Assembly (NCBI RefSeq): GCF_000374165.1
Contig: NZ_KB893746.1
Span: 1 to 45,456, forward strand
Direction: 5' to 3'
Source: Parafrankia elaeagni
GTDB taxonomy: Bacteria; Actinomycetota; Actinomycetes; Frankiales; Frankiaceae
Length of the DNA stretch: 45,456 nucleotides
The stretch's first letter is position 1, and every line of letters begins with the position of its first letter. Shown piece by piece: positions 6,957-42,733 of this stretch. Made by a program: the position numbers and the translations under genes. The notes below the pieces were generated by a model. It was not told the origin of the DNA. It did no database searches and saw only the letters and a list, made by a program, of their open reading frames with translations.

Positions 6957-7936
6957 CGGGTGGCCTGCCGCTGGCTCGGGACCGGAACCGCGGCGACCGT
7001 CTCCCCGATCAGGTCCACGGCGCGCAGGCCGGACATCTCCGCCTCCGGGCGCAGCAGCACCCGGTGCCCGAGGACGTACGGCGCCAGCGCCTTGACGTCG
7101 TCAGGTGTCGCGTAGGTCCGACTGTCGGCCGCCGCGTGTGCCTGCGCGGCGGCGGCGAGCGCCAGCGCGCCCCGGGTGCTCACCCCGAGCCTGACCTCCG
7201 GGCGGCGCCGCGTCGACGCGGCGAGGGTGACGATGTAGCCGAGCAGTGGCTCGGACAGGTGGACCCGGCGGGTGATCCCGATCATCCGGTCGATGTCGGC
7301 GGTGGTCAGGACGGGCGTGACGGCGTCCACCGACCGGCCGCCCCGGCGGTTCGCCAGCACCTCGACCTCGGCGCCGTGGTCCGGGTAGCCGATCGTGAGC
7401 CGCATCATGAACCGGTCGATCTGCGCCTCGGGCAGGTCGTAGGTCCCGCCGTGCTCGACCGGGTTCTGGGTGGCCACGACGAGGAACGGGCGCGGCACGG
7501 CGATCGGCGTCCCGTCCACCGTGACCTGCTGCTCCTCCATCACCTCCAGCAGTGCCGACTGGGTCTTCGGCGAGGCGCGGTTCACCTCGTCGGCGAGGAT
7601 CACGTTGCCGAAGACCGGGCCCGGCTGGAACTCGAAGGTCTCCGTCCCGGAGTGCCACACCTGCACGCCGGTGACGTCGGTGGGCAGCAGGTCGGGGGTG
7701 AACTGGATCCGCCGCATCGTGCCGGCGATCGAGTTCGCCACCGCCTTCGCGAGCGACGTCTTGCCGGTGCCCGGGACGTCGTCGATCAGAACATGACCCT
7801 CGGCCGCCAGGCAGACGGCCACGAGCCGCACGATCTCGGTCTTGCCCCGGATCAACGTCTCCACGTTGCGGACGAGCGCCGTGCCGCGCTCGGCGAACCA
7901 GGCCGCGTCATCCGGGCCCAGCAGCGATTCCGTCAT
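6953..7936 (-). CDS. moxR: MoxR-family AAA+ ATPase
   Basis: 327 residues, usual length for the family. Walker A is VPGTGKTS (54-61); Walker B with the adjacent family motif is ILADEVNRASPKTQSALLE; the sensor region VVATQNPVEHGGTYDLPEAQ is intact. MoxR ATPases are chaperone-like AAA+ proteins that work with DUF58/vWA partners, here the directly overlapping downstream gene. First gene of the four-gene operon; a hairpin (7955-7978) sits just ahead of its ATG. Confidence 0.95.
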   Translation of the reverse strand: MTESLLGPDDAAWFAERGTALVRNVETLIRGKTEIVRLVAVCLAAEGHVLIDDVPGTGKTSLAKAVANSIAGTMRRIQFTPDLLPTDVTGVQVWHSGTETFEFQPGPVFGNVILADEVNRASPKTQSALLEVMEEQQVTVDGTPIAVPRPFLVVATQNPVEHGGTYDLPEAQIDRFMMRLTIGYPDHGAEVEVLANRRGGRSVDAVTPVLTTADIDRMIGITRRVHLSEPLLGYIVTLAASTRRRPEVRLGVSTRGALALAAAAQAHAAADSRTYATPDDVKALAPYVLGHRVLLRPEAEMSGLRAVDLIGETVAAVPVPSQRQATR

Positions 7937-17573: not shown

Positions 17574-18428
17574 GTGCAGCCTCTCCAGGTCGTCATCGTT
17601 CACCGCAACCAGCCGGCGCGCCTCGTCGACACGATCGACGCCTTCCGTGCCCAGGACGTCCCCGTCACGATCACGGTCGTCGACAACGGCTCGGAGGCCG
17701 TGCCGGCGGTCGAGGCCGCCGATGTCGCGGTCGTGCTGGCCGGCAGCAACCTGGGCTTCGGTCCGGCGGCCAACATCGGCTACCGCCGGTTCCTCGCCGA
17801 CGGCGACGCGGGCGAATGGGTGGTGCTCGCGCCGCACGACGCGCTGCCCGAGCCGACCTGTCTGAGCAACATGCTGAGCGTGCTCGCCGAGCACCCACGC
17901 GCGGGGCTGGCCTGCGCGGACGTCGGTGACGGCGCGACACCGGTCATCGACCCCTACTTCGGCGGGATCCTCGTCCCGGCCCGCGTCGAGCAGGGATGGG
18001 AGCCGGTCGGCCACCCGCACGGGACGCTGATGCTCGCCCGGCGCTCCTGCCTCGACGAGGTCGGGATCTTCGACGAGCGCTACTTCGCCTACTGCGAGGA
18101 GGCGGACCTCGCGCTGCGGGCGACTGCCGCCGGCTGGGAGTCCGGCCTTGTGCGGGGTGCGATGGTCCGGAACCCGTCGGTCGGCTCGGCCTCGGCGTCG
18201 ATCGACTACCTGCAGCTGCGCAACACGCTGCTGCTCGTGCGGGAGCACTCCGGCCGTTACCACGTGTTCATCCGGCTCTGTATCGCGCTGTGGCACCTGG
18301 CGTCGGGCGCGGTCGTCCCGGCCCGGCGCGGGCCCTACTGGAACGTGGAAGGACGCCTGCGCGGCCTCCTCGACTTCCTCCGCGGGCGTTTCGGCCCGCC
18401 ACCCCCGCACCTGTTCGCCAAGCGCTGA
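17574..18428 (+). CDS. GT2-family glycosyltransferase (rhamnosyltransferase-like)
   Basis: 284 residues from GTG 17574, with GAGGTAAG upstream at 17557-17564. It has the GT-A nucleotide-sugar fold: VVIVHRNQPARL, VVDNGSE, the AGSNLGFGPAANIGYRRFL segment seen in rhamnosyltransferase-like GT2 enzymes, a catalytic-loop region FDERYFAYCEEADLALRA with the conserved acidic pair, and no TM segment. Probably transfers an activated sugar to a cell-wall or surface glycan; donor and acceptor cannot be read. Stands alone downstream of the two broken genes. Confidence 0.9.
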   Translation: MQPLQVVIVHRNQPARLVDTIDAFRAQDVPVTITVVDNGSEAVPAVEAADVAVVLAGSNLGFGPAANIGYRRFLADGDAGEWVVLAPHDALPEPTCLSNMLSVLAEHPRAGLACADVGDGATPVIDPYFGGILVPARVEQGWEPVGHPHGTLMLARRSCLDEVGIFDERYFAYCEEADLALRATAAGWESGLVRGAMVRNPSVGSASASIDYLQLRNTLLLVREHSGRYHVFIRLCIALWHLASGAVVPARRGPYWNVEGRLRGLLDFLRGRFGPPPPHLFAKR

Positions 18429-19985: not shown

Positions 19986-20792
19986 GTGACCGGCGCGGAA
20001 ATCGGTGTGATCGGCGGAAGCGGCTTCTACTCGCTGTTCGACGGGATGACGGACGTCGCCGTGACGACCCCGTACGGGGACCCCAGCGACGTGGTCGCGG
20101 TCGGGGAGGTCGGCGGCCGGACGGTCGCGTTCCTGCCCCGGCACGGCCGGGGCCACCGGCATCCGGCGCACACGGTCAACTACCGGGCGAACCTGTGGGC
20201 GCTGCGCAGCCTCGGGGTCCGGCAGGTGATCGCCCCGGCCGCGGTCGGGAGCCTGCGCCCCGAGCTCACGGCCGGCACCGTCGTCCTGCCCGACCAGCTG
20301 GTCGACCGGACGTCCGGTCGACCGCAGACCTACTACGACTCCGGCGCGGCGCACGTCTCCTTCGCGGACCCGTACTGTCCGGCGGGCCGCTCGGCGGTGC
20401 TCAAGGCCGGCGCCGACAGCGGCCGGCCACTGGTCGACGGCGCGACGATGGTGGTGGTGCAGGGCCCGCGTTTCTCGACCCGGGCCGAATCCCGCTGGTT
20501 CGCCGCGCAGGGGTGGTCGCTGGTCAACATGACCGGACATCCGGAGGCCGTCCTCGCCCGGGAGCTTGCGCTCTGCTACACGACGATCGCGCTGGTCACC
20601 GACTACGACGCGGGCGTGGACGCCGCCTCGGCCGTCAGCCAGGCCGAGGTCTTCGAGGTGTTCGAACGCAACATCGAGCTGGTGCGCGACCTGGTGTGCC
20701 GGGTCATCCCGACGCTGCCGTCGACGTCCGCGCGGTCGTGCCCGTGCCCGGCCGCGCTGGACGGCCTGACGCTCCCCGTCGACCTGCCCTGA
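19986..20792 (+). CDS. mtnP: S-methyl-5'-thioadenosine/thioinosine phosphorylase (PNP/MTAP family)
   Basis: 268 residues from GTG 19986 (an ATG overlaps out of frame at 19984). PNP/UDP phosphorylase fold with IGVIGGSGFY at the N-terminus (phosphate loop), LPRHGRGHRHPAHTVNYRAN, the family signature region QGPRFSTRAESRWF and the purine/ribose site NMTGHPEAVLARELALCY. Cleaves methylthioadenosine to adenine and methylthioribose-1-phosphate in sulfur salvage; a thioinosine-preferring variant cannot be excluded. The last 89 bp overlap the convergent glycosyltransferase gene. Confidence 0.93.
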   Translation: MTGAEIGVIGGSGFYSLFDGMTDVAVTTPYGDPSDVVAVGEVGGRTVAFLPRHGRGHRHPAHTVNYRANLWALRSLGVRQVIAPAAVGSLRPELTAGTVVLPDQLVDRTSGRPQTYYDSGAAHVSFADPYCPAGRSAVLKAGADSGRPLVDGATMVVVQGPRFSTRAESRWFAAQGWSLVNMTGHPEAVLARELALCYTTIALVTDYDAGVDAASAVSQAEVFEVFERNIELVRDLVCRVIPTLPSTSARSCPCPAALDGLTLPVDLP

Positions 20793-22371
20793 CCCTGACG
20801 CTGACCCGCGCGATGCTGACGCCGAGCACGACGAGCGCCCCGACGACGTAGCCGCCGGGGCGGGTGATCCGGTCGGCGAGCGCGAGATCGGTGAACAGCG
20901 CCATGTAGAGGACGTAGGGCGCCGCGGCCACCGCCAGCCACTCCGGGCGCCGGGCGAGCACCGCCAGCGCCACCAGCGGTATCCCGTACCAGGGCTGGGC
21001 CGGGGTGGCGAGCAGGAAGGCCGCGCCCAGCAGCCGGAGCGCGCCGAGCTCCGCGCTGACCCTGGCCGGATCGGCGCGCCAAACCGCCGCGGCGACCCCG
21101 GCGAGGACGACTCCCGCGGCGAGCTTGGCGGACGTCCCGGACAGGCCGACCAGGCCCAGCAGCAGGAACCGGTGGCCGTCCTGGTAGCCCTCGACCGACA
21201 GGTATCGGGGCAGGAAGCCGACGACGTCCGGGCCGACGGCGAGCACATGCGGCAGGTACGACAGCGCGACGACGGCGACGGCGGTGCCCCCGACCGCCAG
21301 TGTCCGGCGGCGCGCGGCGGCGACGAGCAGCAACGCCGGGTAGAGCTTCACCGCGACCGCCGCGCCCAGCAACGCCCCGGCGGCGACACCGACCCGCGCC
21401 GCGGTGCCGCTGGCGGTCTGTGCCCCGGCGCCGCCGGTCTGTGCCCTGGCGCCGCCGGCCTGTGTCCTGGTGCCGCCGATGCCCGTCCCGTCGGCGTCGC
21501 CGAACCGCGGGGGCCTGCGCAGCCACGGCCGGCCGGGCCGGGCCGGGCCGGCCGGACGTCGCGCGAGCAGCGCGCAGGCTCCGACGGCGAACAACGCCGC
21601 GAGCACGTCGACATGGGCGTCCATGCCCGCGTCGAGCCCGGCGGACGGCGCCCAGGCGTAGGCGGCGGCGTACCCGACCGGATGCCCACGTCCCGCGAGG
21701 ACCCGGACGAGCAGGCCGGTCAGCGCCAGCGAGACCAGCGCCCCGTAGAGCTGGACCTTGTTCTCCCGGGGCGGCCCCGGCAGGTAGTGGACCGCGGTGA
21801 AGTAGGCCTGCGCGACGGGCGGGTAGATCGTGTGCGCCTGCGGGTAGTTGAGCCTCGTGCAGCCCGGGCCGCGGTTGATCTCGGCGCAGGCGGCGTCGTC
21901 CGGCCAGAGCCAGTCGTCCCGCAGGTGCGCCAGCTCGGGGGAGCTGGTCGGGTGGCGGTACGGGTCGATCCCGGCGGCCTGGACCCGGCCGTCCCAGCTG
22001 TAGCGGTACAGGTCGTCGCTCATCCGCGGGCCCGCGCCGATGGCGAGCACATGCACCGCGACGGCGCCCGTGAGTAGCAGCCAGACCGTGGCCCGCCGGG
22101 AGCCGGCGCGTACCAGCAGCCAGGTCCCGAGCGCGGCCACCGCCCACCAGGCGAGTGCCAGGTACAGCACCGCGGGCGGGCCGGGCAGCGGGCCCGGCTG
22201 CGCGATGACCGCGCTCTCCAGCGCGAGCGCACCGGCGAGGGCGCCGGCCGCCGCGACGAGAGCCCACCGCCGCCGTCCGGCTCCTGGTACGGGTCCCTTC
22301 ACGGGTCCCGTACCGGCGGCTGGTCTGTCGGGTGCCGGCGCGGGCGCCTCGGAGTGCGGACGGATCGCCAT
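20704..22371 (-). CDS. GT-C membrane glycosyltransferase (MptB/GT87-like polyprenol-phosphomannose mannosyltransferase)
   Basis: 555 residues from ATG 22371, with about a dozen hydrophobic segments. In the first periplasmic loop it has the acidic GT-C signature SDDLYRYSWDGRVQAAGIDP and, later, TIYPPVAQAYFTAVHYL, a pattern of actinobacterial alpha-1,6-mannosyltransferase/DUF2029-type enzymes that use polyprenyl-phosphate sugars outside the membrane. A cytoplasmic insertion has a short repeat (TQAGGARAQTGGAGAQT). The Thr/Ala-rich C-terminal end is coded in antisense to the end of mtnP. It is divergent from the molybdoprotein gene (115-bp spacer), which suggests shared control with the adjoining envelope genes. 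Confidence 0.88.
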   Translation of the reverse strand: MAIRPHSEAPAPAPDRPAAGTGPVKGPVPGAGRRRWALVAAAGALAGALALESAVIAQPGPLPGPPAVLYLALAWWAVAALGTWLLVRAGSRRATVWLLLTGAVAVHVLAIGAGPRMSDDLYRYSWDGRVQAAGIDPYRHPTSSPELAHLRDDWLWPDDAACAEINRGPGCTRLNYPQAHTIYPPVAQAYFTAVHYLPGPPRENKVQLYGALVSLALTGLLVRVLAGRGHPVGYAAAYAWAPSAGLDAGMDAHVDVLAALFAVGACALLARRPAGPARPGRPWLRRPPRFGDADGTGIGGTRTQAGGARAQTGGAGAQTASGTAARVGVAAGALLGAAVAVKLYPALLLVAAARRRTLAVGGTAVAVVALSYLPHVLAVGPDVVGFLPRYLSVEGYQDGHRFLLLGLVGLSGTSAKLAAGVVLAGVAAAVWRADPARVSAELGALRLLGAAFLLATPAQPWYGIPLVALAVLARRPEWLAVAAAPYVLYMALFTDLALADRITRPGGYVVGALVVLGVSIARVSVRVRAGRRGASGRPARPGTGTTARTSTAASG

Positions 22372-22486
22372 GGGGCCCCAGCCTGGCCGCGCCAGCCCGA
22401 GATGGCCCGTGCCCGGGCGGACGCTTCCGCGGACCGTAATGAGCCGGGCAGGTCCGGAAAGCCGACGTCCTGCCTACCGTGCGTGC

Positions 22487-23686
22487 ATGAACCTGCTCGA
22501 CCGCTCCTTTCCGTCGCCCCCTGAGCGGCTGCGGCGGGGCCCGCTGCGCGGTGACGCCTTCACCAGCCGCCTGCACGACCCGCGCGTCGCGTCGCTGCTG
22601 GGCCTGTGGCTCGGCGTGGCCTTCCTGACGGCGTTCCTGACCGGGCTGGTGTCGCACTTCATGCAGCACCCGCCGGGCCAGTTCGCCTGGTGGTCCAGGC
22701 CGGTGTGGTTCTACCGGCTGACCCAGGGCGTCCACGTCGCGGCGGGGCTGGCCTGCGTGCCGCTGCTGCTGGCGAAGCTGTGGACGGTCTACCCGCGGCT
22801 GTGGGAGTGGCCGCCGGTGCGCAACGCCGCCCACGCGCTCGAACGGATCTCGATCGTCCCGCTGATCGCCGGCGCGCTGTTCCAGCTCGCGACCGGGATC
22901 GCCAACATCGCCCAGTGGTACCAGTTCCGCTTCTTCTTCACGGTGACCCACTACTGGGTCGCCTGGATCACCATCGGCGCGCTGGTGGTGCACGTCGCCG
23001 CCAAACTGGCCGTCGTCCGGGCGAACGTGGGACGTCGCCGCGCCAGCCGGGCGCAGCTGACCGACCGGGTCAGCGAGCCCGAGCCGCCGGGCGAGGGGCT
23101 GTCCCGGCGCGGCTTCGGGATCGCGGTCGGCACCGCCGCCGGTGTGATCACGGTGTCGACCGCCGGCCAGTTCGTGCCCGGCGTCGGCGGCACCGTGCTG
23201 CTCTCGCCGCGCAGCCCGACTCTAGGGCCGCAGGGAGTACCGGTGAACCGCACCGCGGCCGCCGCCGGCGTCGTGGGGATCGCCCGGGACCCCGGGTACC
23301 GGCTCGAGGTCGTCGGCCCGCGCCCGTTCACCCTGACGCTGGCCGAGCTGCACGATCTCGGCCGCGCGACGTCCCGCCTGCCGATCACCTGCGTCGAGGG
23401 CTGGTCGGCCGACGCCACCTGGGACGGGGTGCGGCTGCGCGACCTGCTGGACCGGGCCGGCATCCCGGCCGACGCGAGCGTCCGGGCCGAGTCGCTGGAG
23501 GCACGCGGCGGCTACCGCACGAGCGAGGTCGCACCGCCGCACGCCCGTGATCACCTGACGCTGCTCGCGACCCGGTTGAACGGGGAGCTCCTCGACATCG
23601 AGCACGGTTACCCGGCCCGGCTGATCGCGCCGAACCGGCCGGGCGTCCTGCAGACCAAGTGGGTCCACCGGGTGGTGATGCTGTGA
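22487..23686 (+). CDS. Membrane molybdoprotein: cytochrome-b-like N-domain plus sulfite-oxidase-fold domain
   Basis: 399 residues from ATG 22487; the frame is open upstream but that part is antisense to the GT-C gene. Residues about 35-180 form four TM helices with paired histidines (H57, H83, H155, H169) suited to heme b. A fifth hydrophobic segment starts with a twin-arginine motif, SRRGFGIAVG (206-215), before the sulfite-oxidase-type Moco domain (about 260-399), whose Mo-ligand cysteine is Cys302 in LPITCVEGWSADATW. Family knowledge: such proteins insert their early helices by Sec and export the cofactor-loaded domain by Tat. The electron partner and substrate are unknown. Its stop overlaps the next start as GTGA. 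Confidence 0.9.
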   Translation: MNLLDRSFPSPPERLRRGPLRGDAFTSRLHDPRVASLLGLWLGVAFLTAFLTGLVSHFMQHPPGQFAWWSRPVWFYRLTQGVHVAAGLACVPLLLAKLWTVYPRLWEWPPVRNAAHALERISIVPLIAGALFQLATGIANIAQWYQFRFFFTVTHYWVAWITIGALVVHVAAKLAVVRANVGRRRASRAQLTDRVSEPEPPGEGLSRRGFGIAVGTAAGVITVSTAGQFVPGVGGTVLLSPRSPTLGPQGVPVNRTAAAAGVVGIARDPGYRLEVVGPRPFTLTLAELHDLGRATSRLPITCVEGWSADATWDGVRLRDLLDRAGIPADASVRAESLEARGGYRTSEVAPPHARDHLTLLATRLNGELLDIEHGYPARLIAPNRPGVLQTKWVHRVVML

Positions 23687-24381
23687 GCAGCGACGTGAGC
23701 GGCGACCTGAACGGCGACGTGAGCGGCAGTTCGAGCGGTGGCGGGCTGCGGCCCGGCCAGCCCGGCCAGCCCGGCCAGCCCGGCCAGCCCGGCCAGCCCG
23801 GCCGGGCTGGTCAGGTCGTGCGGGTCCTGCTCGTCTGCGCCGGACTCGCGGCGCTCGGCTACGGGCTCGCCGGCCTGTTCACCCACCCGCGACCGGTCAA
23901 TCTGCCGAACTCGACCCGATGGCTGGCCGGCGGGGTCCTGGTGCACGACCTCGTGCTGGTGCCGGCGACCATGCTGGTCGGGCTCGTCCTCGCCCGGTTC
24001 GTCCCGGCGCCGTACCGGGCCGTGGTGCAGGGTGCCCTGATCGTCTCGGCTTCCGTGGCGCTGATGTGTCTTCCGCTGTGGCTCGGCTACGGGGGCACAC
24101 CGGGAAACCCGACCACGAACCCGCTGCCCTACCGGCGCAACCTCGCCCTCGTGCTCGGGGTCGTGTGGGCCGCCGCCCTTGCGATCATGTTTCTTCGCGC
24201 GGTGCGGCAGGGCCGGGTGCGCGGCGACCAGGCCCGCGGCGCCCAGGCCCGCGGCCGCCGGATCTCAGGCGGCGAGGGGAAGCTCGACGACGAACCGGCA
24301 GCCACCGTCGATGTTGTGGACGGTCACGCCGCCACCGTGCGCCTCGACGATGCCGCGCACGATCGCCAGCCCGAGACCTGA
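23683..24381 (+). CDS. 4-TM membrane protein, partner of the molybdoprotein
   Basis: 232 residues from GTG 23683, which overlaps the molybdoprotein stop by 4 bp. After a Gly/Pro/Gln-rich N-terminus (five GQP repeats) come about four hydrophobic helices: VLLVCAGLAALGYGLAGLF, LVHDLVLVPATMLVGLVLA, LIVSASVALMCLPLWLG, LALVLGVVWAAALAIMFL. No named domain recognised. Translational coupling suggests it forms a complex with the molybdoprotein, perhaps for quinone or heme contact; this is inference. The last 117 bp (24265-24381) run antisense into the end of the convergent histidine kinase gene, so the C-terminal 39 residues are likely of low functional weight. Confidence 0.8.
   Translation: MSSDVSGDLNGDVSGSSSGGGLRPGQPGQPGQPGQPGQPGRAGQVVRVLLVCAGLAALGYGLAGLFTHPRPVNLPNSTRWLAGGVLVHDLVLVPATMLVGLVLARFVPAPYRAVVQGALIVSASVALMCLPLWLGYGGTPGNPTTNPLPYRRNLALVLGVVWAAALAIMFLRAVRQGRVRGDQARGAQARGRRISGGEGKLDDEPAATVDVVDGHAATVRLDDAAHDRQPET
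23755..23799. repeat. 9-bp tandem repeat, five copies
   Basis: GGCCAGCCC is repeated five times without change, encoding a Gly-Gln-Pro run ahead of the first TM helix. Confidence 0.95.
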
Positions 24382-25434
24382 CTGGCTTCCCTCGACGGCC
24401 GGAGCCGTGGGCGGGGTGTGATCGTGCGCCCTGCCCACGGTGGGGGTGCGGGCCGGCTCGCCGCGGAACCCGGTCTCGAAGAGCCGGTCGAGGTCCGCGT
24501 CGGGGATGCCGCCGCAGGTGTCCGCGACCGACACCACCGCGCGTGCCGCCGACACGTTCGCCGTCACCGCGACCGTCCCGTCGCTGGGGGTGTGCCGGAT
24601 CGCGTTGACCAGCAGATTGCTCAGCACACGGCCGACCTCGGCGACGTCGATGTCGACCTTGGTGGTGTCGTCGGCCTCGCCCCGCAGGAGCACCCCCTTC
24701 GCCCGGGCCAGCGGGTCCGCGGCGGCGACCGCGTCCGACACGACATCGCTGAGCGCCACCGTCTCCAGCGTGAGCTCCAGCGAGCCGGCGTGCAGCCGCG
24801 ACAGCTCGAACAGGTCGTCGACGAGGCTGGAGAGCCGCTCCGAGCTGCGCACCATCGCCCGGTGGTAGCGGGCGACGGTGGCGGCGTCGCTGACGACCCC
24901 GTCGTCGAGTGCCTCGGCGGTCGCGCGGATGCCGGCGATCGGCGTCCGCAGGTCGTGGCTGACCCACGCGACCAGCTCGCGGCGGCTCGCCTCCAGCGCC
25001 CGCTCCCGTTCCCGCGCGGCGGCGAGCCGCCGGTGCGACTCGTCCAGCGCCCGGGCGATCGCCGCCAGCTCGGCGGTCGGCGGCGGCCGGCGGACGGGCT
25101 CGTAGCCGGGCTCGCCCAGATGCCCCGCGGCCACCGTCAGCGCGGTGGACGCCCGCGCCAGCGGACGGCCGAGCCACAGCGTCGTCGCCGTGGCGGCCAC
25201 GGCGGACACGGCCAGCACCACGAGCACCACGTCGAGATCGTGGTCGGAGAGGAACATCGCCTGGGCCGTGCCGGCGACGCCGGCCGCCATCGCGGCGACC
25301 CCGGCGAGAACGAGCACCGCTCCCCAGACGCGGATCGGTGCGCGCCGCAGCCAGCGCAGCGCCGGCGCGACGAGCAGCGGCGCGACCAGTGAGCAGGCCA
25401 GCGCGATCCCGACGATGTGCAGCAGGTCCGTCAC
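24265..25434 (-). CDS. Sensor histidine kinase
   Basis: 389 residues. N-terminal hydrophobic helices (about 5-30, 38-60, 68-90) with only short loops, so no large sensor domain; then a HAMP-like linker, H-box LVAWVSHDLRTPIAGIRA with the phospho-acceptor His, N-box NLLVNAIRHT, G1 DTCGGIPDADL and G2 SGLGLAIVRG. The ATG overlaps the response regulator stop as ATGA. Convergent with the molybdoprotein operon and in the middle of the glycan/redox block, so it is a candidate regulator of it. The signal is unknown. Confidence 0.95.
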   Translation of the reverse strand: MTDLLHIVGIALACSLVAPLLVAPALRWLRRAPIRVWGAVLVLAGVAAMAAGVAGTAQAMFLSDHDLDVVLVVLAVSAVAATATTLWLGRPLARASTALTVAAGHLGEPGYEPVRRPPPTAELAAIARALDESHRRLAAARERERALEASRRELVAWVSHDLRTPIAGIRATAEALDDGVVSDAATVARYHRAMVRSSERLSSLVDDLFELSRLHAGSLELTLETVALSDVVSDAVAAADPLARAKGVLLRGEADDTTKVDIDVAEVGRVLSNLLVNAIRHTPSDGTVAVTANVSAARAVVSVADTCGGIPDADLDRLFETGFRGEPARTPTVGRAHDHTPPTAPAVEGSQSGLGLAIVRGIVEAHGGGVTVHNIDGGCRFVVELPLAA

Positions 25435-26165
25435 GACCGCTCCCCGCCCGCGCCGACGTCACCCGGACCGACGTCGCCCGCGCTGGCTCCGGCCTCGAAC
25501 CGGTACCCGATGCCCCAGACCGTCAGCAGCAGCGCCGGACTGGTCGGATCCGCCTCGACCTTCTCCCGCAGCCGGCGGATGTGGACGGTCACGGTCGAGG
25601 CGTCGCCGTAGGTCCAGCCCCACACCCGCTCCAGCAGTGTCACCCGGGAGAACGCCTCACCCGGGTGCGCCATCAGGAAGGCGAGCAGGTCGAACTCCCG
25701 TACCGTCAGCGCCAGGGGCTCGTCACCGCGGGTCGCCACCCGGGCGGCGACGTCCACGACGAGGGAACCGGCCCGCAGCACGCCGCGCCCGGCCGGTGGC
25801 GGCGCCAGCGTGCGGCGCAGCACCGACTGGACCCGCAGCACCAGCTCGCGCGGGGAGAACGGCTTGGTGACGTAGTCGTCGGCGCCCGTCTCCAACCCGG
25901 CGACCCGGTCGGCCTCCTCACCGAGCGCCGTCAGCATCACGATCGGCACCGCGCTTCGTTCCCGCAGCCGGCGACAGACCTGCCGCCCGTCCAGGCCGGG
26001 CAGCATCAGGTCGAGCACGACGAGGTCGGGCTGGCACTCGGCGGCGAGCGCCAGGGCCGCGTGGCCGTCGCCGGCCCGCTCCACCTCGAAGCCGGCGTGG
26101 GAGAGGTAACGGCCGACGACGTCCGCGACGGTCGGGTCGTCCTCGACGAGCAACACCCGGGCCAT
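25431..26165 (-). CDS. OmpR-family response regulator
   Basis: 244 residues. Receiver domain with D9/D10, phospho-acceptor D52 (VVLDLMLPG), conserved Thr (IVMLTALGEE) and Lys (DYVTKPFSPRE); winged-helix effector domain ending VHIRRLREKVEADP and VWGIGYRFEA. Transcribed first in a two-gene operon with its kinase. The divergent GT2 gene starts 142 bp away and the spacer has repeated TGTAAGAA boxes that could be its operator. Confidence 0.96.
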   Translation of the reverse strand: MARVLLVEDDPTVADVVGRYLSHAGFEVERAGDGHAALALAAECQPDLVVLDLMLPGLDGRQVCRRLRERSAVPIVMLTALGEEADRVAGLETGADDYVTKPFSPRELVLRVQSVLRRTLAPPPAGRGVLRAGSLVVDVAARVATRGDEPLALTVREFDLLAFLMAHPGEAFSRVTLLERVWGWTYGDASTVTVHIRRLREKVEADPTSPALLLTVWGIGYRFEAGASAGDVGPGDVGAGGERS

Positions 26166-26224
26166 CCGCCAACGTTAGACGTCCCGGGAGCCCCCGCCGA
26201 GGGCTGTCCACGTGTCCGTTCGTG

Positions 26225-26283
26225 CTTTGTAAGAAGCAGGCCGCGCCGGCGAGGACGTTCCCGTTCTGTAAGAACTGTCAGCA
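26225..26283. promoter_or_regulatory. Candidate OmpR-type operator between regulator and GT2 operon
   Basis: TGTAAGAA occurs at 26228-26235 and 26267-26274, 39 bp apart. The second belongs to CTGTAAGAA-CTGTCAGCA, two half-sites in direct repeat with a 9-bp period, the kind of arrangement OmpR-type dimers bind. It is the only A/T-rich patch in the 142-bp divergent spacer. Confidence 0.45.
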
Positions 26284-26307
26284 CGTTCCGTCACTAGCCT
26301 GCCGACC

Positions 26308-27006
26308 ATGCTCACTGAACGTCAGTCGCCGCCGGGCGCCGGCGCCGTCCACCAGGTGGATGTCGTGCTGCCGTGTCTGGACGAGGCCGCCGCCCTGCCC
26401 TGGGTCCTGGAGCGGATCCCGGCCGGCTACCACGCGATCGTCGCCGACAACGGCTCCACCGACGGCTCCGCCGCCCTGGCCCGCCGGCTGGGCGCCCACG
26501 TCGTCGAGGTGCCGATGCGTGGCTACGGGGCGGCCGTGCACGCCGGTCTGCTCGCCGCCCGCGCCCCCGTGGTCTGCGTCTGCGACGCCGACGCCTCGCT
26601 CGACCCGACGGAACTGCCGCGCCTCGTCGGCCCGGTCGCCGCCGGCGCGGCCGACCTCGTCGTCGGCCGGCGCCGGACCACACAGCGGGGCGCGTGGCCG
26701 CTGCACGCCCGCACCGGCAACGCGATCGTCGCCCGCCAGCTCCGCCGGCGCTGCGGGGCACCCGTTCGCGACATCGGCCCGATGCGCGTCGCCCGGCGCG
26801 AGGCCCTGCTCGCCCTCGGCGTGGCCGACCGCCGGTTCGGCTACCCGCTGGAGCTGCTCGCCCGGGCCGCCGCGGCCGACTGGCGCATCGCCGAGGTCGA
26901 CGTCCCGTACCTGCCCCGCCGGGGCCGGTCGAAGGTCACCGGGACAGCCCTCGGCACCGCCCGCGCCGTGCGGGACATGTCGGCGGTGCTGCGGAGCATT
27001 CCGTGA
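26308..27006 (+). CDS. GT2-family glycosyltransferase (DPM/DPG synthase-like)
   Basis: 232 residues from ATG 26308, with no TM helix. It has VDVVLPCLDEAAALP, VADNGSTDGSA, the DAD metal motif in VCVCDADASLDP, and the acceptor-side DIGPMRVARREAL and VPYLPRRGRSKVTG of dolichyl-phosphate-sugar synthase-type enzymes. In such enzymes the product is a polyprenyl-phosphate sugar, the donor used by GT-C transferases; one of those is coded 4 kb away. Head of a coupled gene set: its stop overlaps the next GTG. Confidence 0.93.
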   Translation: MLTERQSPPGAGAVHQVDVVLPCLDEAAALPWVLERIPAGYHAIVADNGSTDGSAALARRLGAHVVEVPMRGYGAAVHAGLLAARAPVVCVCDADASLDPTELPRLVGPVAAGAADLVVGRRRTTQRGAWPLHARTGNAIVARQLRRRCGAPVRDIGPMRVARREALLALGVADRRFGYPLELLARAAAADWRIAEVDVPYLPRRGRSKVTGTALGTARAVRDMSAVLRSIP

Positions 27007-27773
27007 GGCAACATGCCGTGAGCAAACGTTCGGTGACGCTGATCGTCATCGCCAAGGAGCCGCGACCAGGCCGGGTGAAGACCCGCCTGACGCCCCCCTA
27101 CCGGCCGGAACAGGCGTCGGCGCTGGCCGCGGCCGCGCTCGCCGACACCCTGGACGCCGTGGCGGCGACCTGTGCGAGCTGCCACCCCGAGCTACCGGTG
27201 CGTCCCCTGGTGGTTCTCGACGGGACACCCGGCGACTGGCTGCCGGCCCACCTGCCGGTCGTCGCCCAGGCCGGCGGCCCGTTCGACGAACGGCTCGCCG
27301 CCGCGTTCGACACCGTCCGCGGCGAACCGGCCCTGCTGATCGGGATGGACACCCCGCAGGTACGTGCCCACACCCTGGCCGCGGCCTGCCGCACGCTGCT
27401 CCGCACGGACGCGGTCCTCGGCCCGGCGCTCGACGGCGGCTGGTGGGCACTCGGCCTGCGTGCGGCCGACGGCAACCTCGTCCGGGGAGTCGCGACATCC
27501 CGGACGGACACCGGCGCCGTGCAGCGTGCCCGGCTCGGCGCCGCCGGCCTGCGTGTGGTGGATCTTCCCGTGCTGCGGGACGTCGACACCGCCCCCGACG
27601 TGGAGCTGGTCGCGAACCTGGCACCGGACGGGCGGTTCGCCGCCCTGACCCGCTCCCTCCGGAACCCCGGCCTCCAGACCACCGGCCTCCAGACCACCGG
27701 CCTCCAGACCACCGGTCTTCAGACCACCGGCCGTCAGGCCGACCACGAGACACGTCTGACCCACTCAGGATGA
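27003..27773 (+). CDS. DUF2064 / TIGR04282-type glycosyltransferase-like protein
   Basis: 256 residues from GTG 27003 (GTGA overlap with the GT2 stop); GTG 27018 is an alternative. The N-terminus has the nucleotidyltransferase-like signature IAKEPRPGRVKTRL, followed by LLIGMDTPQV (acidic metal site) and VLGPALDGGWWALGLR. The family has a CofC/MobA-like GT-A fold and is annotated as 'arsenosugar biosynthesis glycosyltransferase', but its real reaction is mostly unproven. The C-terminal GLQTT repeat (four copies) is extra and probably unstructured. Coupled by ATGA to the methyltransferase. Confidence 0.88.
   Translation: MRQHAVSKRSVTLIVIAKEPRPGRVKTRLTPPYRPEQASALAAAALADTLDAVAATCASCHPELPVRPLVVLDGTPGDWLPAHLPVVAQAGGPFDERLAAAFDTVRGEPALLIGMDTPQVRAHTLAAACRTLLRTDAVLGPALDGGWWALGLRAADGNLVRGVATSRTDTGAVQRARLGAAGLRVVDLPVLRDVDTAPDVELVANLAPDGRFAALTRSLRNPGLQTTGLQTTGLQTTGLQTTGRQADHETRLTHSG
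27669..27728. repeat. 15-bp tandem repeat, four copies
   Basis: GGCCTCCAGACCACC three times and one diverged copy, encoding GLQTT at the end of the DUF2064 protein. Confidence 0.95.
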
Positions 27774-28525
27774 GGGCCGACAACACCGCCGTCGCCCGCT
27801 CCGGAGCCGCGGGCGCGGTCGCGGGCGTGGGCGTGGGCGGGGGCGTGGGCGTGGGCGGGGGCGTGGCGTCACCGGGTGCCGTCTACGACGCCGCGCTGCG
27901 CGCACCGGGCAGCCCGCTCCTCGCCCGGCAGCACGGGCAGTGGAGGGCACTGCGCGTCGACCGGTGGCTGGGCCCGGCCTCGACCGCCGACGAGTCGGTG
28001 CTCTCCCGATGCCACGGCCCCGCCCTCGACGTCGGCTGCGGGCCGGGACGTCTCGTCGCCGCCCTCGCCGCCCGTGGCATCCCTGTCCTCGGCATCGACG
28101 TCGCTCCCTTCGCCGTCCTCCTGACCCGGCGGTCAGGCGCCTCGGCGCTGTGCCGCGACGTCTTCGGCCCGCTGCCCGGGGCCGGCCGGTGGCGCGAGGC
28201 ACTGCTCGTCGACGGCAACATCGGGATCGGCGGCGACCCCGGCCGGCTGCTGAACCGGATCGCCCTGCTGCTGGCCCCGGACGGCACCGTGCTGGTCGAA
28301 CTCGACCCGCCAGGCGCACCGACCGGCCCCTACTGGACCCGGCTGGCGGCCGCGGGCCTCGTCAGCGCCCCGCTGCGCTGGGCCGGAGTGGGCGTCGACG
28401 GGATCGCCGGACTCGCCGCCGCCAGCGGTTTCGACGTCGCGGAGACCTGGCGGGCCACCGGGCGGCACTTCGCCCGCCTCGTCCGCGCCGGCGATGCGGC
28501 CCGCTCTGATTTCCTCGGCTCGTAA
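27770..28525 (+). CDS. Class I SAM-dependent methyltransferase
   Basis: 251 residues from ATG 27770 (ATGA overlap with the previous stop). Motif I ALDVGCGPGRLVAALAARG, then VLGIDVAPFAV with the acidic ribose-binding residue. The N-terminus holds a Gly-Val repeat (GVGVGGGVGVGGGV) absent from ordinary family members. Substrate unknown; position in a sugar-handling operon suggests a sugar or lipid-sugar acceptor. Confidence 0.9.
   Translation: MRADNTAVARSGAAGAVAGVGVGGGVGVGGGVASPGAVYDAALRAPGSPLLARQHGQWRALRVDRWLGPASTADESVLSRCHGPALDVGCGPGRLVAALAARGIPVLGIDVAPFAVLLTRRSGASALCRDVFGPLPGAGRWREALLVDGNIGIGGDPGRLLNRIALLLAPDGTVLVELDPPGAPTGPYWTRLAAAGLVSAPLRWAGVGVDGIAGLAAASGFDVAETWRATGRHFARLVRAGDAARSDFLGS
27823..27858. 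repeat. 18-bp tandem repeat, two copies
   Basis: GGGCGTGGGCGTGGGCGG twice in direct succession, encoding the Gly-Val repeat near the methyltransferase start. Confidence 0.9.
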
Positions 28526-28573
28526 GGACCCGCGGGGGCCCGCGGCGCCACGTCGGCACCTAGCGTCGCCAGC

Positions 28574-29623
28574 GTGCACATCCTCGTCACCGGCGGCGCC
28601 GGTTTCATCGGGTCCCATCTCGTCGAGGCGCTGGTGGCGGCGGGGGAGCGGGTCCGGGTCCTCGACGCGCTGGACCCCGCCGTCCACCGGACCCGCCCGA
28701 CCCCGGAGAACCTGCCGGCCGAGCTTGTCGTCGGCGACGTCCGCGACGCGGGCGACGTCGAGTCCGCGCTCGATGGGGTGGACGCCGTGTGCCATCTCGC
28801 CGCGAAGGTCGGCCACGGCGTCGACCTCGACGACCTGCCCGCCTACACCAGCCACAACGATCTCGGCACGGCCGTCCTGCTCGCCGCGATGGCACGCCGC
28901 GGCGTGCGCCGGCTGGTGCTGGCGAGCTCGATGGTCGTCTACGGCGAGGGCGCGTACCGGTGCGCGGCCGACGGCCCGGTCAGGCCCAATCCCCGCGCCG
29001 AGGGCGACCTGCGGTCCGGACGGTTCGAACCCGCCTGCCCCGGCTGCGGACGTCCGCTGGAACCGACCCTGGTACACGAGGACGCGCCGCTCGACCCGCG
29101 CAGCGTCTACGCCGCCAGCAAGGTCGCGCAGGAACACCTCGCCGCCGTCTGGGCGGCTGCCTGCGGTGGATCGGTGGCCGCGTTGCGCTACCACAACGTC
29201 TACGGCCCGCGGATGCCGCGGAACACCCCCTACGCCGGCGTCGCGTCGATCTTCCGCAGCGCCCTGGAACGGGGTGAGCCCCCGCAGGTCTTCGAGGACG
29301 GCGCCCAGCTCCGCGACTTCGTCCACGTCCGGGACGTCGCGCGGGCCACCGCCCTGGCGCTGTCCCCCCGGGCCGCCGAGCCCGGGCGGCTGAGGGCCCT
29401 CAACATCGGCAGCGGCCAGCCGCGCACCATCGGCGACATGGCGTGGGCGCTCGCCCGCGCGTACGGCGGTCCGGACCCGGTGATCACAGGCCGTTACCGC
29501 GCGGCGGACGTCCGCCATGTGACCGCCTCGTCCGCCCGCGCCCGCGACATCCTCGGCTATCAGGCCGCGGTCGCCTTCGCCGAAGGCCTGACGGAGTTCG
29601 CCCGGGCCCCGCTGCGGGTGTGA
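28574..29623 (+). CDS. NDP-sugar epimerase (dTDP-L-rhamnose 4-epimerase-like SDR)
   Basis: 349 residues from GTG 28574, 48 bp after the methyltransferase. Rossmann motif TGGAGFIGSH (7-16), SSMVVYGEGAYR, active-site YAASKVAQEH, and ALRYHNVYGPRMPRNTPYAG for nucleotide-sugar binding. Between strand and active site it has a CPGCGRPLEP insertion, a zinc-ribbon-like pair of Cys typical of the dTDP-L-rhamnose 4-epimerase group, which makes dTDP-6-deoxy-L-talose. Likely provides or edits the sugar used by the neighbouring transferases. Confidence 0.92.
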   Translation: MHILVTGGAGFIGSHLVEALVAAGERVRVLDALDPAVHRTRPTPENLPAELVVGDVRDAGDVESALDGVDAVCHLAAKVGHGVDLDDLPAYTSHNDLGTAVLLAAMARRGVRRLVLASSMVVYGEGAYRCAADGPVRPNPRAEGDLRSGRFEPACPGCGRPLEPTLVHEDAPLDPRSVYAASKVAQEHLAAVWAAACGGSVAALRYHNVYGPRMPRNTPYAGVASIFRSALERGEPPQVFEDGAQLRDFVHVRDVARATALALSPRAAEPGRLRALNIGSGQPRTIGDMAWALARAYGGPDPVITGRYRAADVRHVTASSARARDILGYQAAVAFAEGLTEFARAPLRV

Positions 29624-36848: not shown

Positions 36849-37045
36849 CGGCAACCCTGCTGGGGCCGCCTCGTTGCCACCGGCCGGATTTTCGACGGAT
36901 CACCCATTCCTGGCTGCCCATCCGGCGGAGCGACCCTGACGCCGCCATCCACCCGGTCCGTGCCCCGTGCCCCGTGCCCCGTTTTCCGTTTTCCGTGCCT
37001 GCCGGATCCGTCCCCGATTATCTTTTCCGACGTCGACAGAGGTTC

Positions 37046-38614
37046 ATGGTGATTCACAAGACACGATTACTCGTCACTGCCGCCGTGTGCTGCGCGACGC
37101 TCGTCCTGGGCGCCTGCGGTGGAGGAGGAGACAGCGACCCCGGTCCGTCCTCGGGTGCCTCCGGCGAACCGGTTGTCGGTGGCCAGGGACGGATACTCAC
37201 CCTCAGCGATCCGCGGAGCCTGGATCCGGCGGCTCTCGGCAATGCCTACGCAACCACCGGCGTCGTCGGCAATGCGCTGTACGGGACGCTGATGACCGAC
37301 TCGGCCGGTGAGATCCGGTACTCCATGGCCGAGTCGTTCAGGACCACCGACGCCGGGGCGACGTTCGAGCTGAGGCTGCGACCCGGTCTGGTGTTCTCCG
37401 ACGGGAGCCCCCTGGACGCCGAGGCCGTGAAGTTCAACTGGGACAGGCTCAAGGACCCGGCCACCGCCGCCATCTCCCGCTCGGAGGCATCAATGATCGC
37501 CTCTGCGGAGGTGGTCGACGACACCACTCTGAAGATCGCCATGGCCACTCCGGTGCCGAAGTACGCCCAGGCCGTCCTCACCTCGTCCATGAACTGGATC
37601 GCCTCGCCGCCAGCCCTGGAGAAGGGGCCGCAGGCCTTCGACGCGAACCCGATCGGCGCCGGGCCCTTCACCCTGCGGAGCTGGACCCGCCAGGCCGCCA
37701 TGGAACTGGTCAGGAACCCCCGCTACTGGGACGCGCCCAAGCCCTACCTCGACCGCCTCACTCTCCGCGCGGCCCTCGACAGCAGCCAGCGCCTGAACAC
37801 AGTGCTCACGGGGGGCGCGGACGTCGCCATCGAGTCAAACTGGATCAATATCGACAAGGCCGAGCAGTCCGGCCTGCCGACGAATGTCATTCCGTCCGGA
37901 GGCGGCATCTTCCTGGCACTGAACACCCGCCGGGCACCGTTCGGCGACGTCCGCGCCCGCCAGGCCATCGCTGCGGCGATCGATATGGACGCCCTGAACC
38001 AGGCCGTCTACAACGGCACCGGCCAGCCCGTCGGCACACTGTTCAGCAAGGCCTCGCCCTACCACTCGGACCGGCCTCTGGCGACGACGGACCGCGCACG
38101 GGCGCAGCGGCTCCTCGACGAGATAGCCGCCGACGGAAAGCCGCTGTCCTTCGTCTTCTCGAGTGTGCCGACGACAGACGGCAAGGCGATCGCGGAGAAC
38201 ATCCAGGCCCAGCTCAGCGGCTTCACCAACGTCACCGTCAGGATCAGGACAATCGAGGTCACGGAGCTGGCCGCGTTGCGCACCACCCACGACTTCGATG
38301 TGCTCATCTCGTCCGCCTTCTTCCAGGACCCCGAACCGCGGCTGTGGACGACCTTTCACGGGAGCTCGGCGGCGAACCTGTCCGGCCTCGACGACCCGGC
38401 ACTCAACGAAAGCCTCGTGACCGCCCGCGCCGCGGCTTCGGACGAAGAACGCAAAGCCGCCTACGACACACTGCAGGAAAGGCTGGCCGAGCTGACCCCG
38501 GTGGTCTTCCTCGCTCAGGCGGCACCCAGCGCCGTCTCGACCAGAAACGTCGGCGGACTCGTGCAGTACGGCCTCGGCTCACTGCAGCCCGAGGAACTCT
38601 GGGTCCAGAACTGA
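37046..38614 (+). CDS. ABC transporter substrate-binding lipoprotein, family 5
   Basis: 522 residues from ATG 37046; an earlier start would put a non-signal segment ahead. Lipobox LVLGAC gives a lipidated Cys about 25 residues in. Family-5 (DppA/OppA-type) features: ILTLSDPRSLDPAALGNAYA, LRPGLVFSDGSPLDAEAVKF, and MDALNQAVYNGTGQPVGTL in the ligand lobe. Binds peptides or other solutes outside the cell. No permease or ATPase gene is adjacent, so its partner system is elsewhere. A 13-bp direct repeat (TCCAGAACTGAAC, 17-bp period) spans the stop codon. Confidence 0.93.
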   Translation: MVIHKTRLLVTAAVCCATLVLGACGGGGDSDPGPSSGASGEPVVGGQGRILTLSDPRSLDPAALGNAYATTGVVGNALYGTLMTDSAGEIRYSMAESFRTTDAGATFELRLRPGLVFSDGSPLDAEAVKFNWDRLKDPATAAISRSEASMIASAEVVDDTTLKIAMATPVPKYAQAVLTSSMNWIASPPALEKGPQAFDANPIGAGPFTLRSWTRQAAMELVRNPRYWDAPKPYLDRLTLRAALDSSQRLNTVLTGGADVAIESNWINIDKAEQSGLPTNVIPSGGGIFLALNTRRAPFGDVRARQAIAAAIDMDALNQAVYNGTGQPVGTLFSKASPYHSDRPLATTDRARAQRLLDEIAADGKPLSFVFSSVPTTDGKAIAENIQAQLSGFTNVTVRIRTIEVTELAALRTTHDFDVLISSAFFQDPEPRLWTTFHGSSAANLSGLDDPALNESLVTARAAASDEERKAAYDTLQERLAELTPVVFLAQAAPSAVSTRNVGGLVQYGLGSLQPEELWVQN

Positions 38615-38830
38615 ACTGGATCCAGAACTGAACGATCAGATCGAGGGCGCGGGTGGCCCGGACCTCGGCACCTGGTGCGACCAGAGGTCGTGGTTCCGGG
38701 GCGCCGGCAGGCCTGCCACCTCGACCCAACCAGACACCTTGTTTCTGCGGTGCGGGGTGGGTGCTGATTGAGACAGGGCGCGGTGCGGCTCGCGCGATAC
38801 GTCGCAGGTAACTGTCGCAGTGGCGATCCA

Positions 38831-38858
38831 TTGACATACGGAAAACACCCAATATTTT
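38831..38858 (+). promoter_or_regulatory. Leaderless promoter of the MMPL gene
   Basis: Consensus TTGACA (38831-38836), 16-bp spacer, TATTTT (38853-38858), then 7 bp to ATG 38866. Transcription would begin at or beside the A of the ATG, giving a leaderless mRNA. It lies in an A/T-rich island unlike the rest of the window. Confidence 0.65.
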
Positions 38859-38865
38859 GTCTAGA

Positions 38866-41151: not shown

Positions 41152-41152
41152 C

Positions 41153-41196
41153 GAAACAGGGCCCGGACCTGGGTGGACCGGGCCCCGCCTCGTTTC
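41153..41196. terminator. Bidirectional terminator between MMPL and PhoX genes
   Basis: Nested stems: GAAAC (41153-41157) with GTTTC (41192-41196), and GGGCCCGG (41159-41166) with CCGGGCCC (41178-41185). Lies 2 bp past the MMPL stop and between convergent genes. Confidence 0.7.
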
Positions 41197-41270
41197 ACCG
41201 TGGGCGTCCTACCTGCGCGAGGTGCGTCCAGCGGCGCCGGCCGGCGGGACCGGCCGGCGGGTGGCCGGCG

Positions 41271-42707: not shown

Positions 42708-42733
42708 CAACCGACTCCTTCAACGTTTCCTGG

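What the first reader, a model, noticed from the sequence alone, without database searches (positions are those of the whole stretch)
20704..29623. Uncharacterised glycan/redox gene system around a two-component pair
Ten genes sit in one block: a GT-C polyprenol-sugar mannosyltransferase, a membrane molybdoprotein coupled to a 4-TM protein, a histidine kinase/OmpR pair, and a divergent set of DPM-like GT2, DUF2064 protein, methyltransferase and rhamnose-4-epimerase-like SDR. The first three of this divergent set overlap by 4 bp at each junction. The GT2 could make the polyprenyl-phosphate sugar that the GT-C enzyme uses outside the membrane; the epimerase and methyltransferase could modify the sugar; the molybdoprotein would add extracytoplasmic redox chemistry. 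No known pathway joins these parts. The DUF2064 family's reaction is largely unproven.
Basis: partly seen in the sequence, partly recalled or inferred. Interest (0 to 1): 0.72.

Follow-up and report, generated by a model that had tools for sequence, protein, structure and literature searches.

The report
Thio-sugar envelope pathway with molybdoenzyme
A cluster of about ten genes in a soil actinobacterium looks like a relative of the pathway that puts a sulfur-containing sugar (methylthioxylose) on the tubercle bacillus surface, with an added molybdenum enzyme, a methyltransferase and a dedicated on/off switch, which suggests that this odd sugar chemistry reaches well beyond mycobacteria.

Summary
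The block is real and not a chance neighbourhood. GT2, DUF2064, methyltransferase, SDR, GT-C, molybdoprotein, small membrane protein and RR/HK recur together in Frankiaceae, Streptomyces, Micromonospora, Solirubrobacter and deep actinobacterial families. In 149 phylum genomes all 17 with the molybdoprotein also have the GT2. A 9-bp box sits upstream of the GT2 operon, RR, SDR, GT-C, molybdoprotein and, in a few loci, MTAP (150 of 157 boxes in 118 loci; reversed control 18).

MTX occurs on lipoarabinomannan as thioether and as sulfoxide. The molybdoprotein has an MsrP-type active-site motif behind a cytochrome-b-like membrane module, so I propose a dedicated reductase of the sugar sulfoxide. 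That the sugar is MTX, and the enzyme's direction, are inferred: MTAP is linked in only 9 of 80 named loci, and the window's GT-C is not of the MtxT-like type. New variant of a known kind.

The parts
19986..20792 (+). MTAP, S-methyl-5'-thioadenosine phosphorylase: would give 5-methylthioribose-1-phosphate
   Evidence: NF005876 430 bits, cut-off 306. Within 10 kb of the GT2 in 9 of 80 named loci and in 5 of the 22 other phylum GT2 genomes that have a match; no box just upstream of it in the window
20704..22371 (-). GT-C membrane glycosyltransferase, GT87-like (not of the MtxT-like type)
   Evidence: PF09594 20.8 bits, sub-threshold; a GT-C of some type in 67 of 80 named loci; GT87-like and MtxT-like types cluster apart
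22487..23686 (+). MOLY: four-helix cytochrome-b-like module, twin-Arg, fifth helix, then SUOX-fold molybdopterin domain
   Evidence: PF00174 3.7e-23; cytochrome-b561 and DUF4405 matches only sub-threshold (22.3 of 30.1 and 21 of 26.7 bits); invariant H83, H155, H169, R207-R208, C302 in 39 rows; CVExWS motif aligned to E. coli MsrP; AF2 pLDDT 85.9; SUOX fold
23683..24381 (+). TM4: small membrane protein, 4-bp overlap with MOLY
   Evidence: about four helices by hydropathy; a TM gene in 49 of 80 named loci; no Pfam family over cut-off
24265..25434 (-). Histidine kinase; conserved MFLSxHD-type motif near its last predicted N-terminal helix
   Evidence: HisKA and HATPase_c; motif search [AG]x[AM]M[FL], 2-4 residues, HD: 55 of 79
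25431..26165 (-). OmpR-type response regulator
   Evidence: Response_reg and Trans_reg_C; divergent nearest neighbour of the GT2 in 72 of 114 loci
26225..26235 (+). Regulatory box 1, CTTTGTAAGAA
   Evidence: family motif; YTYTGTAAGAA, written from these two sites, has no third match in the 7.59-Mb genome, reversed control 1
26264..26274 (+). Regulatory box 2, TTCTGTAAGAA
26308..27006 (+). GT2, polyprenyl-phosphate-sugar synthase type (MtxS-like)
   Evidence: PF00535 2.3e-19; best NCBIfam models dolichyl-phosphate hexose transferase and AglJ, both below cut-off; alignment A1
27003..27773 (+). DUF2064 protein, nucleotidyltransferase-like fold
   Evidence: PF09837 87.8 bits, cut-off 25.8; TIGR04282 120.4 of 134 and CofC 33 of 105 bits; profile to 3cgx 5.9e-29
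27770..28525 (+). Class I SAM methyltransferase with DGNxGIGG signature
   Evidence: alignment A6; AF2 pLDDT 87.9; nearest structures XhnM1 and other small-molecule MTases; Pfam matches mostly sub-threshold
28519..28527 (+). One-mismatch regulatory box, 46 bp before the SDR
   Evidence: CTCGTAAGG, also in L009; 12 such one-mismatch matches in the window against 12.25 expected, so weak alone; the SDR has a box in 42 of 118 loci
28574..29623 (+). Extended SDR, nucleotide-sugar epimerase (Y179-xxx-K183), with Cys-bearing insert
   Evidence: PF01370 3.9e-50; alignment A3

Best explanation
A dedicated, two-component-controlled pathway that puts an MTX-type thio-pentose on an envelope glycan and keeps its sulfur reduced. 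Steps: (1) MTAP turns methylthioadenosine into 5-methylthioribose-1-phosphate; (2) the DUF2064 protein activates it to a nucleotide sugar; (3) the SDR epimerises it (ribo to xylo); (4) the GT2 moves it to polyprenyl phosphate; (5) the GT-C transfers it to a glycan outside the membrane; (6) MOLY, fed by quinol through its haem-b-like helices and with TM4 as partner, reduces the sugar's methylsulfoxide back to the thioether; the methyltransferase further methylates the sugar (target unknown). HK/RR switch the set on through a shared box. Shown here: conserved linkage, shared box, MsrP-type motif, fold. Inferred from the mycobacterial precedent: steps 1-5. Inferred by me: step 6, its direction, haem and cofactor, RR binding to the box, and the methyltransferase target. 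Rough confidence: one co-regulated system 0.97; MTX-type sugar 0.7; MOLY acts on the sugar's sulfur 0.5.
For: Co-occurrence: in 149 phylum genomes GT2 in 24, MOLY in 17 (each E up to 1e-40), all 17 within the 24 (chance 4e-17 if genomes were independent), same locus in 14 of 17. 80 GT2-centred named loci: SDR 76, MT 72, DUF2064 68, GT-C 67, MOLY 57, RR 54, HK 50, TM 49, MTAP 9; six window flank genes as controls 0-2. No other gene family recurs in six or more of these loci, apart from three clusters that lie antisense by their coordinates. Box: 157 in 118 loci, 150 upstream of system genes (MOLY in 23 loci, SDR 42, GT2 72, MTAP 3), reversed control 18; 13-18 in five Markov simulations of the full 121-locus set, observed 164; in 2 of 30 further genomes an MTAP outside the locus has it just upstream. 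MTAP linkage recurs in several lineages. MOLY aligns to E. coli MsrP at CVExWSxxxxWxG, unlike sulfite oxidase CAGNRR. MTX and its sulfoxide are real envelope sugars. A cited title calls a natural carbohydrate a substrate of M. tuberculosis MsrA (reference list only).
Against: MTAP is not within 10 kb of the GT2 in 71 of 80 named loci (21 of the 80 are shorter than 20 kb) or in 17 of 22 other phylum GT2 genomes with a match, and 28 of 30 MTAPs outside the locus lack a box just upstream; MTAP is also a general salvage enzyme. The window's GT-C is not MtxT-like and none was found in its genome (no positive control). MOLY scores nearer to sulfite oxidases than to MsrP by profile (1e-14 against 9.7e-10) and by Foldseek E-value, and fails the MsrP equivalog cut-off (28.3 of 207); its cytochrome-b matches are sub-threshold. 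G170 keeps MOLY, MTAP and an SDR piece without GT2 or DUF2064. 18 of 83 loci with a linked RR, some Frankiaceae among them, lack a strict box before the GT2, and 11 of 31 without a linked RR have one. The methyltransferase is unexplained by MTX. The loci are related, so the counts are not independent.
Confidence: 0.6

Rival explanations
1. The same co-regulated envelope glycosylation system, but the sugar is an ordinary hexose or 6-deoxy sugar: the GT2 is a dolichyl-phosphate-hexose-type synthase, the SDR a 4-epimerase, the methyltransferase O-methylates the sugar, and MOLY is a general envelope methionine-sulfoxide repair enzyme under the same stress control.
For: The GT2's best NCBIfam models are dolichyl-phosphate hexose transferase and AglJ; the SDR's best is galE; MTAP is unlinked in 71 of 80 loci; in E. 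coli msrPQ also lies near a two-component pair, hprRS.
Against: MTAP recurs in the locus in several lineages and sometimes carries the box. MOLY was found in no phylum genome without the GT2, odd for a general repair enzyme, though G170 of the family is an exception. The family match scores are all below cut-off.
Confidence: 0.25
2. MTX-type pathway, but MOLY works as an oxidase: it makes the sugar sulfoxide (or desulfurises the sugar) and passes electrons to the quinone pool.
For: Profile and fold scores nearest to sulfite oxidases and dehydrogenases; sulfoxide is a real form of the sugar in lipoarabinomannan.
Against: The active-site motif is of MsrP type, without the CAGNRR loop; no dimerisation-domain family was matched, and the SUOX domain ends the protein; oxidation of a thioether needs no enzyme in the presence of oxidants (general chemistry).
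Confidence: 0.12
3. Chance neighbourhood of unrelated envelope genes.
For: Gene order is rearranged between lineages.
Against: Linkage, genome-wide co-occurrence and the shared box.
Confidence: 0.01

Closest known systems
Methylthioxylose (MTX) capping pathway of mycobacterial lipoarabinomannan (MtxS Rv0539, MtxT Rv0541c)
   Same: MTAP, SDR epimerase, DUF2064 protein, GT2 for the polyprenyl-phosphate sugar and a GT-C. Unnamed family f4 loci show both layouts: L042 has the five core genes alone, L040 and L041 the same five in the same arrangement plus RR/HK/MT/TM/MOLY.
   Different: Added MOLY, TM protein, methyltransferase and RR/HK; in the window the GT-C is GT87-like; Streptomyces and Frankia are not known to me (recall) to make lipoarabinomannan, so the acceptor must differ.
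E. coli MsrPQ with the HprRS two-component system
   Same: SUOX-fold molybdoprotein with CVExWSxxxxWxG motif, a membrane partner, and a two-component pair nearby.
   Different: In the window the membrane module is fused N-terminal to the Mo domain; MOLY is tied to a glycan pathway; below the MsrP equivalog cut-off.
TIGR04282/TIGR04283 'arsenosugar' transferase pair
   Same: DUF2064 protein beside a GT2.
   Different: Both below the model cut-offs; no further gene family, hence no radical-SAM family, recurs in six or more of the 80 named loci.
Three-component systems for extracytoplasmic pentofuranose addition (PMC11127046)
   Same: Pentofuranose added outside the membrane by a GT-C.
   Different: That paper sets MTX apart: its donor starts from methylthioadenosine, not PRPP (passage).

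Membership tests
MTX pathway locus | MTAP in the locus | tested here: met
   window 19986-20792, 430 bits, cut-off 306
MTX pathway locus | MtxS-type GT2 | tested here: inconclusive
   59% identical to the GT2s of L040-L042, whose layout fits the recalled M. tuberculosis one; no comparison with Rv0539 itself
MTX pathway locus | DUF2064 protein beside the GT2 | tested here: met
   PF09837 87.8 bits, cut-off 25.8; 4-bp overlap; that the mycobacterial cluster has one is recalled
MTX pathway locus | Nucleotide-sugar epimerase (SDR) | tested here: met
   PF01370 3.9e-50; Y179, K183 invariant in 24 rows; C-3 specificity not testable
MTX pathway locus | MtxT-type GT-C | tested here: not met
   the window GT-C belongs to the GT87-like type, which clusters apart from the type of L040-L042; no such GT-C found in the own genome, without a positive control in that call; Rv0541c itself not compared
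MTX pathway locus | Product is methylthioxylose on a glycan | not testable with these tools
   needs chemistry
MsrP (protein-methionine-sulfoxide reductase) | SUOX-fold Mo domain with CVExWSxxxxWxG Mo-Cys motif | tested here: met
MsrP (protein-methionine-sulfoxide reductase) | NCBIfam PRK05363 equivalog cut-off | tested here: not met
   28.3 of 207 bits
MsrP (protein-methionine-sulfoxide reductase) | Separate MsrQ haem-b partner | tested here: not met
   in MOLY the membrane helices are fused N-terminal to the Mo domain; TM4 matched no family over cut-off
Sulfite oxidase/dehydrogenase | SorA/SoxC/SorT equivalog cut-offs | tested here: not met
   SoxC 43.2 of 420, SorA 35.2 of 600 and SorT 22.8 of 570 bits
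Sulfite oxidase/dehydrogenase | CAGNRR-type active-site loop (meaning recalled) | tested here: not met
Arsenosugar TIGR04282/04283 system | Model cut-offs for the GT2 and the DUF2064 protein | tested here: not met
   34.5 of 182 and 120.4 of 134 bits

The most novel reading that the evidence does not exclude
A redox-active thio-sugar coat is widespread in Actinomycetota outside mycobacteria: MTX-type residues on envelope glycans act as sacrificial antioxidants, a dedicated quinol-fed molybdoenzyme regenerates the thioether from the sulfoxide outside the membrane, and a pathway-specific two-component system that senses the envelope turns the set on. I know of no other glycan with its own enzymatic sulfur-repair cycle (recall; not searched for as such).
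Probability: 0.33. Interest if true: 0.85.

Novelty: new variant of a known kind. Interest (0 to 1): 0.62.

Why it matters
PMC11127046 (passage) says it is unclear whether the MTX modification exists outside lipoarabinomannan assembly. This gene set makes that directly testable in harmless actinomycetes. It also offers a candidate type of enzyme for the thioether/sulfoxide pair seen in the tubercle bacillus glycan, a genetic context for the uncharacterised DUF2064 family (0 papers in the held library had the term), and a defined regulon with its box.
Full report
WHAT IS THERE. The stretch 20704-29623 holds nine genes: a GT87-like GT-C, a molybdoprotein (MOLY), a small membrane protein (TM4), HK and RR, and a divergent run GT2 - DUF2064 - methyltransferase (MT) - SDR. 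GT2/DUF2064 and DUF2064/MT overlap by 4 bp, and so do MOLY/TM4 and RR/HK. Just outside lies MTAP (19986-20792; 430 bits, cut-off 306), convergent with the GT-C. The genome is most likely a Frankiaceae: three contigs of its family f1 have the same lengths as contigs of named Frankia and Pseudofrankia records (107941, 31237 and 70489 bases), and a 400-bp stretch of the GT2 is identical in each pair (Pseudofrankia is in Frankiaceae).

IS IT CHANCE? No. A draw of 149 phylum genomes, the window's own included, has the MtxS-like GT2 (E up to 1e-40) in 24 and MOLY (E up to 1e-40) in 17; all 17 are among the 24 and 0 of 125 GT2-less genomes have MOLY; MOLY and GT2 lie in one locus (under 12 kb) in 14 of 17. 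If genomes were independent the chance is 4e-17; they are related, so read it as an order of magnitude. The MOLY alignment came from loci of this system, which leans the search towards such copies. In the family, MOLY (69% or more identical) is in 28 of 36 genomes and a full-length strong GT2 in 25 of 36, plus one split and one partial. 26 of the 28 MOLY genomes have the GT2; the exceptions are G154 (its MOLY contig, 6.1 kb, ends within the block) and G170, where MTAP, MOLY and an SDR piece remain without GT2 or DUF2064.

NEIGHBOURHOODS. Within 10 kb: SDR 76, MT 72, DUF2064 68, GT-C 67, MOLY 57, RR 54, HK 50, TM 49, MTAP 9; window flank genes as controls: WYL 2, TetR 1, ABH 1, the other three 0. 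Of the 59 loci longer than 20 kb: SDR, MT and GT-C 57 each, DUF2064 50, MOLY 46, RR 44, HK 41, TM 38, MTAP 8. Clustering the ORFs of these loci (90 aa or more, with coding-like GC bias) showed no other family in six or more loci, apart from three unlabelled clusters whose example ORFs lie antisense to GT2/DUF2064 by their coordinates. So the set looks closed at that sensitivity. In the 20 MOLY-centred family loci: GT-C and TM 19, MT 18, GT2, DUF2064, SDR and RR 17, HK 16, MTAP 3.

ONE REGULON. RR is the divergent nearest neighbour of the GT2 in 72 of 114 loci, and a matrix fitted to those gaps finds GCGTTTCGTAAGGAG-like sites in 66 of 72 (low score limit, no control). In 121 loci the core T[TC][TC]GTAAG[GA] occurs 164 times, against 13-18 in five Markov simulations. 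Without the three duplicate genomes: 157 in 118 loci, 150 of them within 400 bp upstream of a detected system gene (loci per gene: GT2 72, RR 59, SDR 42, MOLY 23, GT87-like GT-C 22, MTAP 3), 4 inside genes, 3 elsewhere; the reversed pattern gives 18. 65 of 83 loci with a linked RR have a box before the GT2, against 11 of 31 without; the 18 that lack it include Kribbella, Micromonospora, families f4 and f7 and some Frankiaceae. In the window's 7.59-Mb genome YTYTGTAAGAA, a pattern written from the two window sites, has no third match (reversed control 1). In 2 of 30 genomes where MTAP was not in the fetched locus, MTAP has the box 57-67 bp upstream; 28 do not (one MTAP copy looked at per genome). 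The gap before MOLY in the window has only a degenerate sequence. That the RR binds the box is inferred from place and conservation.

THE KNOWN PATHWAY. MTX is a 5-deoxy-5-methylthio-xylofuranose on lipoarabinomannan. MtxS (Rv0539) makes the C50-phosphate-linked donor and MtxT (Rv0541c) transfers it (figure-legend passage of PMC8780516). [quoted passage not shown] From recall of the abstract of Angala et al. 2017 (not held): a five-gene cluster; MTA to methylthioribose-1-phosphate, to a nucleotide sugar, C-3 epimerisation, then MtxS and MtxT; and the machinery is conserved in a number of Actinomycetales, so spread beyond mycobacteria is not my discovery. Also recalled: Rv0535 is MTAP, Rv0536 GalE3, Rv0540 the DUF2064 protein, Rv0542c MenE. 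The unnamed family f4 shows the five-gene layout alone in L042 (MTAP-SDR ... GT2-DUF2064 and GT-C) and the same five in the same arrangement plus RR/HK/MT/TM/MOLY in L040 and L041; a MenE-like gene (read by eye from sequence, no family search) lies within about 4 kb of the GT-C in all three. The GT-C of f4 is 52-55% identical to that of one Streptomyces locus, L104. Two genomes of family f16 have GT2, DUF2064, SDR and an MTAP-like gene (35-37% or less identical) within about 9 kb and no MOLY. So MTAP linkage recurs in f1, f4, f16, Kribbella, Catelliglobosispora and the Streptomyces/Kitasatospora/Streptacidiphilus group, though it is absent in most loci; in some fragmented genomes the distance could not be seen.

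MOLY. 39 sequences share H83 (helix 2), H155 and H169 (helix 4), R207-R208 before a fifth helix, and C302 in LPIxCVEGWSxxxxWxG (S nearly invariant). The model (pLDDT 85.9, pTM 0.83) has four long helices, a fifth after the Arg pair, and a C-terminal SUOX domain. Cytochrome-b Pfam matches are sub-threshold, so the haem rests mainly on the invariant histidines. Aligned to E. coli MsrP (RCVEAWSMVVPWIG) the Mo-cysteine motif agrees in letters and spacing; sulfite oxidase has CAGNRR plus an insert. But by overall score sulfite oxidases are nearer, and no equivalog cut-off is met. The thioether and sulfoxide forms of the sugar are both seen in M. tuberculosis lipoarabinomannan (passages of PMC8531672; PMC9912281), and a title in the reference list of PMC10503756 calls a natural carbohydrate a substrate of M. 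tuberculosis methionine sulfoxide reductase A (that paper not read). Hence: an extracytoplasmic sugar-sulfoxide reductase. Topology, haem, Mo cofactor and direction are inferred.

OTHER PARTS. DUF2064: nearest solved structure 3cgx, 'putative nucleotide-diphospho-sugar transferase' (5.9e-29); a weak link to CofC (0.033). SDR: Y179 and K183 invariant, C130 and C155 invariant, C158 nearly so. MT: conserved DGNxGIGG; its structure relatives are mixed. MT-MOLY-TM also occurs as a separate module away from the GT2 (L167 with a GT-C, L168, L169), so MT and MOLY may serve one purpose; against that, MT is also present in full-length loci without MOLY (57 against 46 of 59). HK: MFLSxHD-type motif in 55 of 79.

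VERDICT. A coherent, co-regulated system; most likely a variant of the MTX pathway with an added sulfur-redox and methylation module and, in Frankiaceae, another GT-C. Not a strict member of the mtx locus, because the MtxT-type feature is not met in the window. Novelty: new variant of a known kind; the redox module and its regulon are the new elements.

Noticed in passing
L167 6067-9744, L168 7247-9542, L169 7068-9473: MT, MOLY and TM (with a GT-C in L167) form a separable module at a second site in genomes that also have the GT2.
   Followed up: partly
window 24265-25434: The kinase has a conserved MFLSxHD-type motif near its last predicted N-terminal helix (55 of 79 by pattern); a possible sensing site.
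   Followed up: partly
window 28574-29623: The SDR has an insert with conserved cysteines (C130, C155, C158), possibly a metal site; C158 is missing in L041.
   Followed up: no
L040 16363, L041 2841, L042 15623: The MTAP and SDR matches abut, sharing one base, which suggests coupled expression.
   Followed up: no
L019 6721-9083: A genus mate keeps MTAP, MOLY and an SDR fragment while GT2 and DUF2064 were not found: a decayed or alternative form.
   Followed up: partly
window 22432-22441: GACCGTAATG before MOLY is conserved in L009 and L010 and resembles a degenerate box.
   Followed up: no
window 17574-18428: A second GT2 gene; in the loci counted it recurs only in L009, the nearest relative.
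   Followed up: no
window 3289-7936: Transglutaminase (TgpA-like), DUF58 and MoxR ATPase run.
   Followed up: no
window 36974-42710: Solute-binding protein, MMPL transporter and PhoX phosphatase genes.
   Followed up: no
window 44388-45248: DDE transposase near the contig end.
   Followed up: no
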